Part shown: positions 37,799 to 49,259 of the stretch, piece by piece
How positions within the stretch are numbered: the first letter of the stretch is position 1
Layout of the letters: every line of letters starts with the position of its first letter
IMG/VR virus record: IMGVR_UViG_3300017991_000056
Span: 62,001 to 126,000 of that record
DNA from: a virus
DNA: 64,000 nt
Reading direction: 5' to 3' (one strand)
Notes under the pieces: model-generated
The model's input: the letters and a program-made list of their open reading frames with translations, nothing else
Told to the model about the DNA's origin: nothing
Database searches by the model: none
Program-made: the position numbers and the translations under genes

Positions 37799-38554
37799 AT
37801 GTCTGCGTCTGTCTGTCCAGACCGCATCGAGACCATCGAGATGGCACCCACCTTCAGGCGTTCCGGGAGTCCTTCGGCCGGGGCTCTGGTCGGGATGCCG
37901 GCTGAGCGGTCTCCGGTGATTGAGCGTATTCCGGTTACCCAGAAGTATCTTGCCGCTGTCATCAGCACCGGCTTCGAGGTTGACCATCCTGGTTGGGCTC
38001 GGGCGAGGCCGTATTTCGAGGAGAGCCTCCGCGACAGCGTGGCGGCGCTTGTTCATACCTTCGCTTCCAAGTATGCGACCTCTTGCGACGATGAGATTGA
38101 AGACTTGGAGCAGGAGTGCTTCCGGCGCATATTCATGAAGCTCCACCTCTACAAGCCCTTGAAGGGGGCGTTCACCACTTGGACCTCCCGCGTCTGTCAT
38201 AGCGTGTTGAATGGGAAGTATCGGAAGAGCAAGAGGTGGAAGGGGCGAGTCGTGTTGTCCGAGCCGGCTATCATCGAGAGGGTTGTTGATGCGAGCGAGG
38301 AAGGGGACCGATGCGACAGGTTCGACATGCGTGAGGCGCTGAGGGAGCTCTTCGGTCTCCATCCGGAGTTTCGGGGCTTCTTGACGGCTCTGTTCGACGG
38401 CGATCCCGAGGAGGACGACTACGAGCCGCCAGGGAAGATTAGTGTGATGGGGGCGTGCAGGATTTCCGGCGCGCCGTACGAGAGGGCGTACCCGTTCTAC
38501 CTGAAGGTGGTGCGACCGTTTTTCAGGGAGCGTTTTGCTGGAGATGAGAGATGA
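37799..38554 (+). CDS. Sigma-70 family RNA polymerase sigma factor (ECF-like)
   Basis: 251 aa, ATG 37799 after GGAGGG. Residues about 73-148 follow sigma region 2: a helix with S-V-A-A-L-V-H-T-F-A-S-K-Y, then D-D-E-I-E-D-L-E-Q-E-C-F-R-R-I-F, then the DNA-melting helix G-A-F-T-T-W-T-S-R-V-C-H-S-V-L-N. The second half has a possible region 4 (A-C-R-I-S-G-A-P-Y-E-R-A) that is degenerate. The 86-bp gap upstream is AT-rich with a T-run and TATAAG (37745-37750), a possible promoter. It may drive the GCGTATA(A/G)T sites in the replication half. Confidence 0.75.
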   Translation: MSASVCPDRIETIEMAPTFRRSGSPSAGALVGMPAERSPVIERIPVTQKYLAAVISTGFEVDHPGWARARPYFEESLRDSVAALVHTFASKYATSCDDEIEDLEQECFRRIFMKLHLYKPLKGAFTTWTSRVCHSVLNGKYRKSKRWKGRVVLSEPAIIERVVDASEEGDRCDRFDMREALRELFGLHPEFRGFLTALFDGDPEEDDYEPPGKISVMGACRISGAPYERAYPFYLKVVRPFFRERFAGDER

Positions 38555-38982
38555 CAGCTGCCGATGTGATGATGGAGAAGAGGAAGGCGATAGGGGAGCT
38601 TTTGCCGAGTTCGTGTTTCGGCCACTACCTGGAAACCTCCAAGGCATGTTCGAACTGCCAGATCGCCAAGCACTGCGTCAAGACGACGGAAAGGGTCAGG
38701 AGCGGCAGCCCGCCGCCGGCCCCGGGGCATCCCGAGCCGAAGACGGTTCCGGCGCCCGACGCCAAGGAGTACCTGCTGACGACCCTCAGGGGCAAGTTTG
38801 ACATGTCGGCCTCCAGGGAGGGCGACGTCCAGACTTGGAAGTTCCACAAGGATGGCAAGCCGGCCTTTTGGGTGATGGAGAAGGGTGGCAGGCTGGGCCT
38901 TCAGACGCGCAAGGGCAGGGAGGTGTTGGAGCTGCCGTCCTCGGTCGTCGAGGTCGAGGCGGCCTTGGAGAGGCTCCTGTGA
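38551..38982 (+). CDS. Small protein with C-x10-C-x2-C-x5-C zinc module
   Basis: 143 aa, overlapping the sigma gene stop. Near residues 22-41 it has C-F-G-H-Y-L-E-T-S-K-A-C-S-N-C-Q-I-A-K-H-C, a four-cysteine module with the same spacing and C-F-G start as the C-terminus of the SSB gene at 43436. The C-terminal half is a small alpha/beta domain. Position between a sigma factor and a helicase suggests a transcription or DNA-metabolism accessory, but function is unknown. Confidence 0.6.
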   Translation: MTAADVMMEKRKAIGELLPSSCFGHYLETSKACSNCQIAKHCVKTTERVRSGSPPPAPGHPEPKTVPAPDAKEYLLTTLRGKFDMSASREGDVQTWKFHKDGKPAFWVMEKGGRLGLQTRKGREVLELPSSVVEVEAALERLL

Positions 38983-39890
38983 GGACGACGGAGTACCCCT
39001 GGTACCTTCCGCCCTTCCCTGAGTTCAATGAGGCCCAGGCAGCGGCCGTTCCGTTCCTGGACGAGGACGTGAACATGGTCGTGGCCTTTCCCACCGCGAC
39101 GGGCAAGTCGGTGCTGGCCGAGTGCGCCTTTGCCTATCACCTGTCAGTGGACGAGAAGGCCAGGGTGGCCTATGTCTGTCCATACAGGAGCCTGGGCGCC
39201 CGGATGTATGCCGAGTGGGTCTCCAACGGGGCCTTCGTCGGCCACGGGGTGATGCTGAGCTCGGGGGACACGGTGCCGACGGCGCGGGAGTGGGAGAGGT
39301 GCAGGATGGCGGTCCTGACGGTCGAGTCGTTCGACTCCAAGGTCAGGTCGGCGTCGTACTCCGAGTGGGTGGAGAGCCTCGCATGCGTGGTTTTCGACGA
39401 GGCCCACCTTCTGGGCGAGAAGGTGAGAGGGGCGGCGCTTGAGGCTTCCCTCATGAGGTTCACCGCGGCCAACCAGTCGGCGCGCGTCGTCATGCTCTCC
39501 GCGACCATGGCCAACGCGCTGGAGGTGGCCAGGTGGGTCAAGAGTCTCAACGGGAAGCCGACGAAGTGCGTTCGGAGCTCGTGGAGGCCGACGGGCATCG
39601 ACATGAGGTTCCACGAGGCGGAGCGGGGGTCCGAGGCCGAGAGGGCCGTTGAGGTGGCCAGGGCCATGCGGGGAAAGACGATCGTGTTCGTCCACTCGAA
39701 GAGGGTGGGCAGGGAGGTGGCTGCGGGTCTAGTCGAGAGCGGGGTGCGCTGTGCCTTCCACAACGCGTCGGTGCCGAAGGGCCGGAGGGCCGCGATGGAG
39801 AAGGCTTTCGATGATCCCGCGTCCGGTCTCGACGTTCTGGTGTCGACGTCGACCCTGGGTGCGGGGGTGAATATAGGCAGCAGCGGTTGA
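38979..39890 (+). CDS. Ski2/Hel308-like SF2 helicase, N-terminal part (motifs I-V)
   Basis: 303 aa from GTG 38979, overlapping the previous gene. Motif I is A-F-P-T-A-T-G-K-S, motif II V-F-D-E-A-H, motif III M-L-S-A-T, motif IV I-V-F-V-H-S-K and motif V L-V-S-T-S-T-L-G-A-G-V-N, after which the frame ends I-G-S-S-G-stop. Motif VI and the C-terminal domains are encoded at 40666-41673. The break lies exactly between motifs V and VI, with a uracil-DNA glycosylase gene in between. Either the two polypeptides assemble, or RNA-level splicing joins them. Confidence 0.85.
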   Translation: MRTTEYPWYLPPFPEFNEAQAAAVPFLDEDVNMVVAFPTATGKSVLAECAFAYHLSVDEKARVAYVCPYRSLGARMYAEWVSNGAFVGHGVMLSSGDTVPTAREWERCRMAVLTVESFDSKVRSASYSEWVESLACVVFDEAHLLGEKVRGAALEASLMRFTAANQSARVVMLSATMANALEVARWVKSLNGKPTKCVRSSWRPTGIDMRFHEAERGSEAERAVEVARAMRGKTIVFVHSKRVGREVAAGLVESGVRCAFHNASVPKGRRAAMEKAFDDPASGLDVLVSTSTLGAGVNIGSSG

Positions 39891-39924
39891 TTTGTAATTG
39901 TCTACTGAACGGGGAGTGCATCGG

Positions 39925-40509
39925 ATGAGAAGCGAGCAGGAGAGGCTGGACATCCTCAGATCGGCATGCCTGGAATGTCGGATGTGCAAGTCCATCGGTG
40001 GGGTTGTGATCGACGGTTGCGTGTCCAACGTGTTTTCCAGCGGGGGCGTCCGTTGCGCTCTGGCGGTCGTCGGGCAGAACCCAGGCCGTGACGAGGTGGC
40101 CGCGGGCATGCCGTTTGTCGGGGCCTCGGGGAGGTTCTTCGACGAGGCTCTGGCCGAGTGGGTTGGTCTGTCGAGGGATCAGGTCTACGCGACCAACGTG
40201 GTGCATTGCTACACGCCGGGCAACCGGGCTCCGACGTTGGAGGAGCTGGACAACTGCCGCCCCTTCCTGGAGGAGGAGATCGAGATCGTGCGGCCGAAAG
40301 TGGTGCTCGCCCTTGGGGCTTTCGCCTTCAAGATGCTGACCGGGATGAGCGGGATCATGAAGCACTGCGGGGACGTGGTCCATTCGATCCGGTACGGGGT
40401 CCAGGTGGTCGGCTGCCTGCATCCCAGCCCGTACAACACGAGCGACCCGGAGAAGCGGGAGATGTTCGCGCAGGCGATGAGGAGGCTCAGGGAGGTGCTC
40501 GATGCGTGA
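39925..40509 (+). CDS. Family 4-type uracil-DNA glycosylase
   Basis: 194 aa from ATG 39925 after GGGGAG; a TTG at 39898 is a weaker alternative. Iron-sulfur ligands look intact: C-L-E-C near residue 15 and later V-V-H-C...N-C-R with 15 residues between the cysteines, as in family 4 UDGs. Motif A is V-G-Q-N-P-G-R-D-E-V, followed by G-M-P-F-V-G-A-S-G, and the H-P-S-P-Y-N motif is present. It excises uracil from DNA. It interrupts the helicase gene between its motif V and motif VI coding parts. Its GC resembles its neighbours, so it may be an old insertion. Confidence 0.85.
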   Translation: MRSEQERLDILRSACLECRMCKSIGGVVIDGCVSNVFSSGGVRCALAVVGQNPGRDEVAAGMPFVGASGRFFDEALAEWVGLSRDQVYATNVVHCYTPGNRAPTLEELDNCRPFLEEEIEIVRPKVVLALGAFAFKMLTGMSGIMKHCGDVVHSIRYGVQVVGCLHPSPYNTSDPEKREMFAQAMRRLREVLDA

Positions 40510-40665
40510 CTGGTGGCTCAGAGGTTTCCGGGCGGCGTATAGTTTGCAGATGAGAGCGTCTGGTGCTGGTTCGTAGCTTGGCTTGCCAGGTTTGTGGAGC
40601 GGGAGGCATGAAGGCGGGGCCTTGTGGCAACATGACTAGCGACGAGTACGATAGGTGGTTCGGGG
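40510..40665 (+). other. Intergenic region between glycosylase and helicase C-part
   Basis: No long ORF. It holds a GCGTATAGT promoter-like site (40538) and a possible 21-codon ORF from ATG 40608 (ribosome site GGGAGG) ending at 40673, which overlaps the helicase start. The frame of the helicase C-part is open back to 40636 and reads A-T-S-T-I-G-G-S-G just before ATG 40666, echoing the I-G-S-S-G end of the N-part. No group I or II intron core was found here. Confidence 0.5.
40538..40543 (+). promoter_or_regulatory. Putative -10 element in GCGTATAGT motif
   Basis: TATAGT in TTTCCGGGCGGCGTATAGTTTGC, in the gap after the glycosylase gene. It could allow separate transcription of the helicase C-part. 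Member of the GCGTATA(A/G)T set. Confidence 0.5.
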
Positions 40666-41673
40666 ATGGCTGACAACGTGGTCATAGTGGGAGTGAGACG
40701 GGGGCCGTCCCTGGTTCCGGTCGGCGAGCTGCGTCAGATGGCGGGGCGTGCCGGGCGCGTCCAGGGAGGCGCCGACGCCCGCATCGAGGTGGTGGTGTCC
40801 CCCGAGGACGCCGACTACGCCGGAGAGGCGCTGTCTCCAGGAGGGGACCCGGTCGTGGGGTCGGCCATGGGGGACGAGGACGTCATGGCTTTCCACTTGC
40901 TCCCCGAGATATGCGCTGGAAGGGTCCGTGGGGGTCGCACGGCGGCCTTGTGGCACTCGCGCGGCTTCCATGCGGCGCTGGGGTTGCCGTCGCCGGTCGA
41001 CGGCGCAATGGGGCTTCTGAGGGACTGTGGGGCGATCGAGGAGTCGACGGGGAGGGTCGTGGCTACGTCGCTTGGAAGAGTGGCGTCGCTGATGTACTTC
41101 CATCCGGTGGACGTGGCGGCGTGGGCGTCCAACTTCGACGAGGTGTTCAGGCTCGGGGCCGAGGACGACGACCTGGCTGCGGCGTGGGCTCTCGGGAGCG
41201 TCCCGTCTTCGAGGAGGTCGGGCGATCTGTCCGGGAGGTTCTGGGTGGCCGGGAAGTTCAAGGACGAGCTTCCGTCAGGTCTGGAGCCAGTGGCCGGGTC
41301 GATCGTGAACTGCGTCCTGTGGTGGTCTCTGGTAGGGGGGCCGTCCGTCGGCCCGCTGAGGGGGCTGTCCCTCCAGCTCCGCGAAGACAGGCAGAGGGTG
41401 TTCGGCGCGCTGAGGAGGCTTGACAGGGAGGTGGGCCGGTGGGGCAGGTCGGACTACTTCGACCGTCTGGAGTTCCAGGTGGAGAAGTCGATCCCGGTTG
41501 AGCTCGTGCCCCTATGCCGGCTGCCCGGCGTCGGGAAGGGCATGGCCATCAGGTTGTACGAGATGGGGGTCGAGGGTCCGGAGGCGGTTCTGGCGGAGGC
41601 CGGCGTGGAGGGTCCGAGGAGCGACGAGGAGACGGGCATGATTGCCAGGGGGCTGGCTGATGGTCTCTGCTGA
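40666..41673 (+). CDS. Ski2/Hel308-like helicase, C-terminal part (motif VI, winged helix, HhH)
   Basis: 335 aa, ATG 40666. It begins A-D-N-V-V-I-V-G and quickly reaches motif VI Q-M-A-G-R-A-G-R, so it continues the helicase ended at 39890. The following 200 residues resemble a winged helix and ratchet domain, and the end has a helix-hairpin-helix: C-R-L-P-G-V-G-K-G-M-A-I-R-L. It cannot hydrolyse ATP alone because motifs I-V are missing. Overlaps the next gene by 14 bases. Confidence 0.85.
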   Translation: MADNVVIVGVRRGPSLVPVGELRQMAGRAGRVQGGADARIEVVVSPEDADYAGEALSPGGDPVVGSAMGDEDVMAFHLLPEICAGRVRGGRTAALWHSRGFHAALGLPSPVDGAMGLLRDCGAIEESTGRVVATSLGRVASLMYFHPVDVAAWASNFDEVFRLGAEDDDLAAAWALGSVPSSRRSGDLSGRFWVAGKFKDELPSGLEPVAGSIVNCVLWWSLVGGPSVGPLRGLSLQLREDRQRVFGALRRLDREVGRWGRSDYFDRLEFQVEKSIPVELVPLCRLPGVGKGMAIRLYEMGVEGPEAVLAEAGVEGPRSDEETGMIARGLADGLC

Positions 41674-47334: not shown

Positions 47335-47892
47335 ATGAGCTACAGGATAGGTTTGGTTGGCGCGGGGGGAACCGGGAAGTCGACGCTGGCGAGGATGCTG
47401 GCGGAAAAGCTCGGGCTGCCGCTGCTGGCGTCGAAGTGCGTTACCCAGGAGATACTGGACCGGGACGGCTACGATTATGGCTCGGGCATCCAGATAGAGA
47501 GGTTCCTGGCGAACAGCCACAGGCAGATCGAGCTGGTCAAGAGGACCTTTCAGGCCTACGAGGGTATCGAGTTCTTCGTGACGGACAGGACGGCGATAGA
47601 CCTGGCGGCCTACGCCCTCTGCGAGCTGAACGACTCCGCCCCCGAGACCCTGAAGAAGGTGTTCGAGTTCTGCAGGGACAGCGTTGGGTCCTACACGCAT
47701 CTCTTCCTCTGTCCGCGGGGGAGCCTTCCGATGGAGAGCAACAGGAGGAGGACGCTGAACCCCTGGTACCAGTTCCTGATCCACACCATCGAGCGGGGCA
47801 TCGCCGAGGACTGGAAGGTTGGCCTGACCGAGCTGAAGAAGGAAAGCGTCGAGGAGAGGGTGGCGGAGGTCAGGTCCTGGTTGAAGGCGTAA
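47335..47892 (+). CDS. P-loop kinase/ATPase
   Basis: 185 aa, two bases after the previous stop. Walker A G-A-G-G-T-G-K-S-T at residues 9-17, and a central V-T-D-R-T-A-I-D-L-A-A-Y, as in small nucleotide or NadR-like kinases (AAA_28 type). Possibly a nucleotide or nicotinamide-riboside kinase; substrate cannot be read from the sequence. Confidence 0.65.
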   Translation: MSYRIGLVGAGGTGKSTLARMLAEKLGLPLLASKCVTQEILDRDGYDYGSGIQIERFLANSHRQIELVKRTFQAYEGIEFFVTDRTAIDLAAYALCELNDSAPETLKKVFEFCRDSVGSYTHLFLCPRGSLPMESNRRRTLNPWYQFLIHTIERGIAEDWKVGLTELKKESVEERVAEVRSWLKA

Positions 47893-47895
47893 TAT

Positions 47896-47908
47896 TCGTT
47901 TTATATCC
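47896..47908 (+). promoter_or_regulatory. Putative promoter motif TCGTTTTATATCC (second copy)
   Basis: Exact repeat of 8059-8071 in the gap upstream of the FtsZ-like gene. It suggests that this GTPase is expressed from the same promoter class as a transcription unit in the structural region. Confidence 0.5.
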
Positions 47909-48077
47909 TGACAGTTGTGTAGAGCGGTGCCACGCCGAGATGGAGGAAGCCATGAGCGGTAAGGGAGAGGTGCTTCACGGTTCGCGGTTCGTCCGTGACG
48001 GACTTGCGGGGGCCGAGGGGGGAGGACATGCCGAGAGGCGCAGGGTTGTCATATCGCGAGACAGCGAGGAGAGCGCA

Positions 48078-49259
48078 ATGAGCGACGACATCGTCAATGA
48101 TGATTTCCTGGTTGACGTTCCGGACATCCCGATGCCCGAGGAGGGCGTCGCGGAGGGCGAGGTGGTCAAGGACGAGTTCGAGGGCGCGTTCGACTACGCC
48201 TTCGTTGGGGCCGGGCAGGCGGGCAGCCGCATCGTCGAGAGCTTCTGGAAGCTCGGCTATCGGCGCGTGTGCTGCGTTAACACGAATAGCCAGGACCTGG
48301 CCGGGATCGACATTCCGGAGTCGAACAAGCTCGTCATGGATATTGGCTCTGGCGGCGCGGGCAAGGACCCGGCAAAGGGCGCCAAGGCAATTCAGAGCTA
48401 CTACGAGGACGTCTACGACCTGATGCGGCGCAGTTTCGGACGCAAGTTCGACCGTGTCTTCGTCTCCGTCGGAGCCGGAGGCGGCACGGGAAGCGGCTGC
48501 GCGAAGGCCCTCGTCGACATCGCTCACGACATCGCCAGGTCGTTTAAGGTCGAGGAGGAGGGTGGCAAGCCGGCGGTCGGCGCCATTGCGGCGCTGCCCA
48601 AGACGACCGAGGGGGCCAAGGTGAACTTCAACGCCCACGGCGTTCTGGACGATCTGTTCTCGATGGTTGGGAGCGACGCGGGGAAGCTGGCCGGCAGGAG
48701 CCTGAGTCCCCTGATCGTTATTGACAACGACAGGATTAACCGGCTCTATCCCAATCTGCCAGTGGCGAAGTTCTGGGATGTGGCGAACCGGAACGTCTCC
48801 AGCTTGTTCCATTTGTTCAACACCATCGCGATCAGGGATTCCGACTTCACGACTTTTGACAGGGCGGACCTCAAGGACATCCTTGAGTCCGGCACGGTGA
48901 CGTTCGGGGCATGCCCGATGAAGAAGTGGGGCGCCGCGGACGACATCAGCTACGCCATCCGGGACAACCTCCGGAGGAACGTCCTGGTCGGCGGCTTCGA
49001 CTTGAAGCAGGCCAAGGCGGCCGGCTGCGTCTTCATCGCCCACGGCGACGTGTTGGAGAAGGTTCCCCAGGCGTATCTGGAGCACGGCTTCGAGATGCTG
49101 TCCAGGATCATGGGCGCCGGTTCTGTCGTGCATCGCGGCATCTACCGGGGCGGCAAGCCAGGGCTCGTGGTCTACACGATCCTGGGAGAGCTCGGGCGTC
49201 CCGACGAGCGCATGGAGGAGATCGCGCGCGTCGGCGGGGCCACGTTGAGGAAGGAATAG
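48078..49259 (+). CDS. FtsZ/tubulin-like GTPase
   Basis: 393 aa from ATG 48078 with GAGGAGA five bases upstream. In-frame ATGs at 47940 and 47952 (GGAGG-linked) would add 42-46 residues. Residues about 38-70 begin the GTPase fold (Y-A-F-V-G-A-G-Q-A-G-S-R-I-V), and the T4 loop is G-A-G-G-G-T-G-S-G. The T7 region reads D-F-T-T-F-D-R-A-D-L-K-D-I-L, with the catalytic D-x-x-D of FtsZ-like proteins. Phage tubulins (PhuZ, TubZ) centre or move phage DNA or replication compartments. This one keeps an FtsZ-like signature. No phage-nucleus shell gene is recognised here. Confidence 0.85.
   Translation: MSDDIVNDDFLVDVPDIPMPEEGVAEGEVVKDEFEGAFDYAFVGAGQAGSRIVESFWKLGYRRVCCVNTNSQDLAGIDIPESNKLVMDIGSGGAGKDPAKGAKAIQSYYEDVYDLMRRSFGRKFDRVFVSVGAGGGTGSGCAKALVDIAHDIARSFKVEEEGGKPAVGAIAALPKTTEGAKVNFNAHGVLDDLFSMVGSDAGKLAGRSLSPLIVIDNDRINRLYPNLPVAKFWDVANRNVSSLFHLFNTIAIRDSDFTTFDRADLKDILESGTVTFGACPMKKWGAADDISYAIRDNLRRNVLVGGFDLKQAKAAGCVFIAHGDVLEKVPQAYLEHGFEMLSRIMGAGSVVHRGIYRGGKPGLVVYTILGELGRPDERMEEIARVGGATLRKE

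What the first reader, a model, noticed from the sequence alone, without database searches (positions are those of the whole stretch)
38979..41673. Helicase split between motifs V and VI by a uracil-DNA glycosylase gene
The N-part ends G-A-G-V-N-I-G-S-S-G-stop and the C-part, after an open stretch reading I-G-G-S-G, resumes A-D-N-V-V-I and motif VI. The break is exactly within the conserved core and the flanks show a short imperfect echo (I-G-S-S-G versus I-G-G-S-G). If spliced after GGT and before ATG 40666, an uninterrupted Ski2-like helicase is restored, but no intron core was found. So it is either a split helicase that assembles from two chains, or an unusual intron carrying a repair gene.
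Basis: partly seen in the sequence, partly recalled or inferred. Interest (0 to 1): 0.75.

Follow-up and report, generated by a model that had tools for sequence, protein, structure and literature searches.

The report
Two-piece phage helicase flanking a uracil-DNA glycosylase
A family of large phages encodes a Hel308-like DNA helicase as two separate proteins, cut through the middle of one motor domain, and most of these phages have a DNA-repair gene lodged in the cut; the cut is old, conserved and not removed by splicing, so the two proteins most likely assemble into one enzyme.

Summary
In detail: helicase motifs I-V lie in one ORF (38979-39890), motif VI onward in another (40666-41673), with a family-4-like uracil-DNA glycosylase (UDG) between. 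The window belongs to a 133-kb phage contig.

Eleven distinct phage lineages carry the same split at the same residue: the C-part's start codon takes the place of P in the motif-V run GxNLPA. In nine the UDG sits between. In two (L020/L051 and L052) the halves are direct neighbours, 1 and 14 nt apart, with no UDG. The tree gives one origin of the split, with these two as the sister branch, so the split most simply predates the UDG. In L048 and L050 the UDG overlaps both halves and no noncoding base remains, so an intron is impossible there. No intron core or intein remnant was found.

Both halves are under purifying selection, motif VI is invariant, and no second copy exists in any record. The best explanation is a two-subunit helicase with RecA2 completed across the chains. 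Assembly itself is inferred. Phage precedents exist for other enzymes (Aeh1 NrdA, phage 25 gp43). I know of no such helicase and found none in limited literature searches.

The parts
38979..39890 (+). Helicase N-part: RecA1 (motifs I-III) plus the first part of RecA2 (motifs IV and V), 303 aa, GTG start overlapping the previous gene's stop (GTGA)
   Evidence: Pfam DEAD 1.7e-23 and truncated Helicase_C 2.3e-6; AlphaFold model pLDDT 89, nearest structures Hel308 and Brr2
39925..40509 (+). Uracil-DNA glycosylase, family-4-like, 194 aa
   Evidence: Pfam UDG 2.4e-32; TIGR00758 123.9 bits against a cut-off of 125.3; Cys positions and the GQNPG and HPSP motifs shared by all nine interposed copies, bar GQSPG in L046
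40608..40673 (+). 22-codon ORF (MKAGPCGNMTSDEYDRWFGDG*) whose stop overlaps the C-part start (ATGGCTGA); probable remnant of 'ORF-X', which lies at this place in L010 (119 aa) and L009 (141 aa)
   Evidence: 11-residue match MTSDEYDRWFG / MTSEEFEHWYG to L010 ORF-X in the same position and with the same ATGGCTGA overlap; 0 of 2000 shuffles score as high. The match to L009 ORF-X was not above shuffles
40666..41673 (+). Helicase C-part: the rest of RecA2 (strand VVIVGV, motif VI QMAGRAGR), winged helix, helical domain and helix-hairpin-helix, 335 aa
   Evidence: 27% identity over 95% of its length to the intact homologue; AlphaFold model pLDDT 87, residues 69-335 match Hel308 residues about 410-683

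Best explanation
This is a Hel308/Ski2-like DNA helicase made of two separately translated subunits. The first subunit carries the ATP-binding RecA1 domain and the first part of RecA2. The second carries the last strands of RecA2 with the motif VI arginine residues, the winged helix, the helical (ratchet-like) domain and the HhH. Neither chain has a complete ATPase site, so the two most likely bind each other and complete RecA2 across the chains. SHOWN: the same split in 11 lineages, a single origin, purifying selection on both halves, invariant catalytic residues in both, no second copy, overlapping genes with no room for an intron, and the split present without UDG. INFERRED: physical assembly and helicase activity; that a point or indel event created the stop and restart before UDG, and later ORF-X, ORF-Y or a Vsr-like nuclease gene, settled in the junction; and that overlapping stop/start codons give roughly equal, co-localised synthesis, with UDG perhaps working with the helicase in repair next to the phage RecA and DnaB-like genes.
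For: Intact relatives join exactly across the break. L020 is syntenic with the window (HD/OB-like gene, Toprim primase, Cys-rich gene, N, C, HEAT-like gene, RecA), with N ending GVNL-TAA, one base, then the C-part ATG and no UDG. L052 also lacks it. UDG overlaps both halves in L048 and L050. The split clade has support 100 and the UDG-less pair is sister to the rest, 94. dN/dS is 0.05-0.2 for both halves where dS is not saturated. Motif VI Q24, G27, R28, R31 is invariant in 26 C-parts, split and intact; motifs I, II and III residues are invariant in 26 N-parts. There is one helicase copy per record. N and C identity matrices correlate, r = 0.95.
Against: No biochemical or proteomic evidence. 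The C-part diverges faster than the N-part (mean 36% against 50% identity; intact pairs of like N identity average 43%), which could mean some relaxation. AlphaFold models were made for single chains only, so the interface was not tested. All records are metagenomic contigs of unknown completeness, so an unseen second helicase cannot be excluded.
Confidence: 0.87

Rival explanations
1. A self-splicing intron carrying the UDG gene: the transcript is spliced to restore a single helicase.
For: The break lies in a highly conserved motif, where introns and inteins like to sit. The window's junctions are lower in G+C than the genes: 46% over 37 nt and 60% over 156 nt.
Against: No Rfam match in the window or relatives, even at E up to 10 locally. 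In L048 and L050 the UDG overlaps both halves, and in L043 N, UDG, ORF-X and C overlap throughout, so no noncoding base is left. In L020 the halves are 1 nt apart. The window's 156-nt stretch holds a probable remnant of ORF-X.
Confidence: 0.02
2. The halves are a decaying pseudogene: the helicase was broken and is being lost.
For: The C-part evolves faster than the N-part, and the window's ORF-X is already broken.
Against: dN/dS is 0.05-0.2 where measurable on both sides, all catalytic residues are invariant, open frames are kept in 11 lineages over deep divergence, and both halves give confident Hel308-like models.
Confidence: 0.04
3. The halves are rejoined at protein level by trans-splicing split inteins, the 'fractured gene' arrangement.
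For: A relative (L034) carries a Hint/LAGLIDADG intein three residues before the split point, and L053 has a Vsr-like nuclease gene in the gap, the nuclease type reported for fractured genes (Dassa 2009 as cited in PMC12350094).
Against: N-parts stop 0-4 residues after GVNx (13-14 in L053) and C-parts start 1-2 residues before the conserved strand; there is no intein sequence or Cys/Ser/Thr +1 pattern on either side.
Confidence: 0.02
4. The two chains act separately: the N-part as a minimal ATPase, the C-part as a DNA-binding protein, with no shared active site.
For: The C-part's winged helix, helical domain and HhH could bind DNA alone.
Against: Motif VI (QMxGRxGR) has no known use without the RecA1 ATP site, yet it is invariant in the C-part. 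The N-part alone lacks the arginine finger.
Confidence: 0.05

Closest known systems
Hel308/Hjm and Brr2/Ski2-like SF2 helicases (2P6R, 2ZJ5, 2VA8, Brr2, PolQ helicase domain)
   Same: Sequence profile, motifs I-VI, RecA1, RecA2, winged helix, helical domain and terminal HhH; nearest structures for both halves
   Different: Those are single chains; here the chain is cut between motifs V and VI inside RecA2
Phage 'genes in pieces': Aeh1 nrdA-a/nrdA-b, Aeromonas phage 25 gp43A/43B, T4 topoisomerase gene 60/39 (review PMC2988022)
   Same: A conserved phage DNA-metabolism gene split in a critical region into two polypeptides, with another gene in the gap; for gene 43 the split may predate the inserted gene, as here
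   Different: Those gaps hold homing endonucleases or untranslated sequence, here mostly a UDG; the enzyme is a helicase; the split is conserved across a whole clade; activity is not yet shown
'Fractured genes' with split inteins and Vsr-like (EDxHD) endonucleases (Dassa 2009, cited in PMC12350094)
   Same: Split at an intein-prone motif; a Vsr-like nuclease gene in the gap of L053
   Different: No intein halves, so no protein trans-splicing
E. coli Lhr, a helicase that is also a uracil-DNA glycosylase (PMC10953399)
   Same: Links an SF2 DNA helicase with uracil removal
   Different: Lhr is one protein with an AlkZ-like domain; here a separate family-4-like UDG is only a gene neighbour

Membership tests
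Hel308/Ski2-like SF2 helicase (both chains taken together) | Motifs I, II, III in RecA1 and V, VI in RecA2 | tested here: met
   Motif residues invariant in 26 N-parts and 26 C-parts
Hel308/Ski2-like SF2 helicase (both chains taken together) | Winged helix, helical ratchet domain and C-terminal HhH after RecA2 | tested here: met
   C-part model residues 69-335 align with Hel308 about 410-683, Z 12-14.5 over 251-258 residues; weak HhH matches in L020
Hel308/Ski2-like SF2 helicase (both chains taken together) | Single polypeptide | tested here: not met
   Two ORFs in 11 lineages; so filed as a split variant of the superfamily, not as an ordinary Hel308
Archaeal Hel308 proper (NF040935) | Score above the curated cut-off | tested here: not met
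   N-part 90.1 and C-part 23.6 bits against a cut-off of 1200 for the full-length model
Phage genes-in-pieces enzymes | Intact homologue in relatives, the same gene in two ORFs here | tested here: met
Phage genes-in-pieces enzymes | The two polypeptides assemble into active enzyme | not testable with these tools
   Needs co-expression and assay
Group I/II intron | Catalytic core in the intervening sequence | tested here: not met
   no noncoding space in L048, L050, L043
Split-intein fractured gene | Intein halves at the inner ends of both ORFs | tested here: not met
Family 4 UDG | Fe-S cysteines and glycosylase motifs | tested here: met
   CxxC plus two further Cys, GQNPG (GQSPG in L046) and HPSP in nine copies; TIGR00758 1.4 bits under the cut-off, so 'family-4-like'

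The most novel reading that the evidence does not exclude
The interposed UDG is not a passenger: helicase N-part, UDG and C-part are made in turn from one message and assemble into a single helicase-glycosylase complex, a split-motor machine that scans phage DNA for uracil, similar in purpose to Lhr but built from three chains.
Probability: 0.2. Interest if true: 0.75.

Novelty: new variant of a known kind. Interest (0 to 1): 0.56.

Why it matters
Splitting a RecA-fold motor domain between motifs V and VI means that the ATP site must be completed by another protein. That a whole clade of phages has kept this suggests that an SF2 helicase core tolerates, or profits from, being two subunits; it offers a natural split helicase that could be controlled or engineered. 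The series intact, intein-bearing, split without insert, split with UDG, split with UDG plus further genes also shows stages by which a conserved motif becomes a landing site for genes.

Tried and rejected
Intron: Rfam at gathering threshold and at E up to 10, in the window and relatives, no match. I looked by eye for U/G splice sites and an internal guide sequence; nothing convincing. Ribosomal bypass between GGT codons or frameshift: the gap holds whole genes, and frame and spacing differ in each relative, so rejected by inspection. Echo IGSSG/IGGSG: not conserved, chance. First searches with single proteins in viral contigs found nothing; the alignment searches did. Genome contigs: no relatives with the N-part alignment, so no cellular or prophage version seen. 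The 5' end of the window's ORF-X remnant (40502, MRDWW...) was not above shuffles, so only the 3' end is claimed. ORF-X and ORF-Y had no PHROG or Pfam match. PDB sequence search with the profile built on the joined protein gave Brr2, ASCC3 and Hel308.

Full report
What is there. In the window, a GTG-initiated ORF at 38979-39890 (303 aa) carries RecA1 and the start of RecA2 of an SF2 helicase and stops four residues after the motif-V run GVNI. A UDG gene follows (39925-40509). An ORF at 40666-41673 (335 aa) then starts with the strand after motif V and goes on through motif VI (QMAGRAGR) to a helix-hairpin-helix end. The window lies in a virus record of 133,403 bases, next to genes for a DnaB-like helicase, a Toprim primase, a sigma-70 region 2 protein, a HEAT-like protein, RecA and a tubulin/FtsZ-like protein.

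Intact relatives. The 595-kb phage LR756511 has one 675-aa ORF that aligns with both parts end to end...TSTLAWGLNL-P-ARRVVILG..., with only P left uncovered by the window's two parts. A profile of the joined protein found 33 viral loci, most with an intact gene. Two of them contain inteins: L034 at motif V (AWG/CNLPARR; Hint and LAGLIDADG domains) and L022 at Walker A (the L022 intein is judged from its reading frame only).

Split relatives. Further scans brought the split members to eleven lineages: window, L043 (=L009), L044, L046, L047 (=L010/L011), L048, L049, L050, L053, L051 (=L020) and L052. Every C-part begins with ATG or GTG in the column of the P of GxNLPA, followed by [AS]-[DN] in ten of the eleven (Q-N in L052). 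In L051 the halves are separated by one base (TAA-A-ATG) and in L052 by 14 bases, with no UDG; L051's 202-kb record has no UDG anywhere. In the other nine the UDG is between the halves, once per record. In L048 and L050 it overlaps both halves (ATGA at the left, 8 and 11 bases at the right). L043 has N, UDG, ORF-X and C overlapping throughout; L047 adds ORF-Y; L053 has a zinc-finger plus DUF559/Vsr-like nuclease gene between N and UDG. The window's 156-bp stretch before the C-part holds the probable 3' end of a broken ORF-X, with the same ATGGCTGA overlap as L047.

Why no intron. There is no room for a ribozyme in L048, L050, L043 or L051, and no Rfam match in any record examined or in the window. 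The open reading 'IGGSG' before 40666 is untranslated sequence in front of the start codon.

Order of events. The tree of 39 helicases puts the 11 split ones on one side of a branch (support 100), with the UDG-less pair sister to the nine with UDG (94; quick method, midpoint root; one artificial column filled the P position). The split thus most simply came first and the UDG second; loss of UDG in the pair's ancestor is not excluded. Identities of N, UDG and C across the nine vary together (N-C r 0.95, N-UDG r 0.69), as expected if they have been inherited together.

Function is kept. dN/dS of both halves is 0.05-0.2 where synonymous change is not saturated. Walker A, DEAH, SAT and motif V residues are invariant in N-parts, and Q, G, R, R of motif VI in C-parts, in split and intact proteins alike. 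There is no second copy in any of the eleven records. Single-chain AlphaFold models are confident (pLDDT 89 and 87) and their best structural relatives are Hel308, Brr2 and PolQ. The least confident part of the C-part model is residues 30-70 (block means 56-76), the RecA2 remainder, as expected if it needs the N-part; this is suggestive only.

Mechanism. Because motif VI contributes the arginines that contact ATP held by RecA1 (established knowledge of SF2 helicases), a C-part with invariant motif VI but no Walker motifs makes sense only beside the N-part. I therefore conclude, by inference, a two-subunit helicase. Phage precedent exists: the two NrdA pieces of Aeh1 are fully active, and gp43A/43B of phage 25 co-purify and polymerise DNA; for gene 43 the inserted gene may have entered an already split gene (PMC2988022). 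I found no report of an SF2 helicase so split, but the held library lacks most subscription journals. The role of the UDG is open: passenger in a tolerant junction, or a working partner, as the Lhr helicase-UDG suggests (PMC10953399).

Noticed in passing
L034:6922-8235: Hint plus LAGLIDADG intein inserted in motif V (AWG/CNLPARR) of an intact relative, three residues from the split point of the window's clade.
   Followed up: partly
L022:4969-6008: In-frame insertion of about 1 kb at Walker A (SSGK/T) of another relative, with intein-like ends (..THN/T); no profile search done.
   Followed up: no
L053:4583-5428: Zinc-finger plus DUF559/Vsr-like nuclease gene between the helicase N-part and UDG; the N-part there has a hydrophobic tail IGVLFLTFCAALLL.
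   Followed up: partly
L009:7458-7883, L010:7767-8126, L010:7486-7764: ORF-X and ORF-Y: small families without any Pfam or PHROG match, seen here only inside the helicase split.
   Followed up: partly
window 47436-49259: Tubulin/FtsZ-like protein (Pfam Tubulin 9e-12, weak TubZ C-terminal match) in a phage with RecA; possible phage cytoskeleton gene.
   Followed up: no
window 37799-38554: Sigma-70 region 2 protein two genes upstream of the helicase.
   Followed up: no
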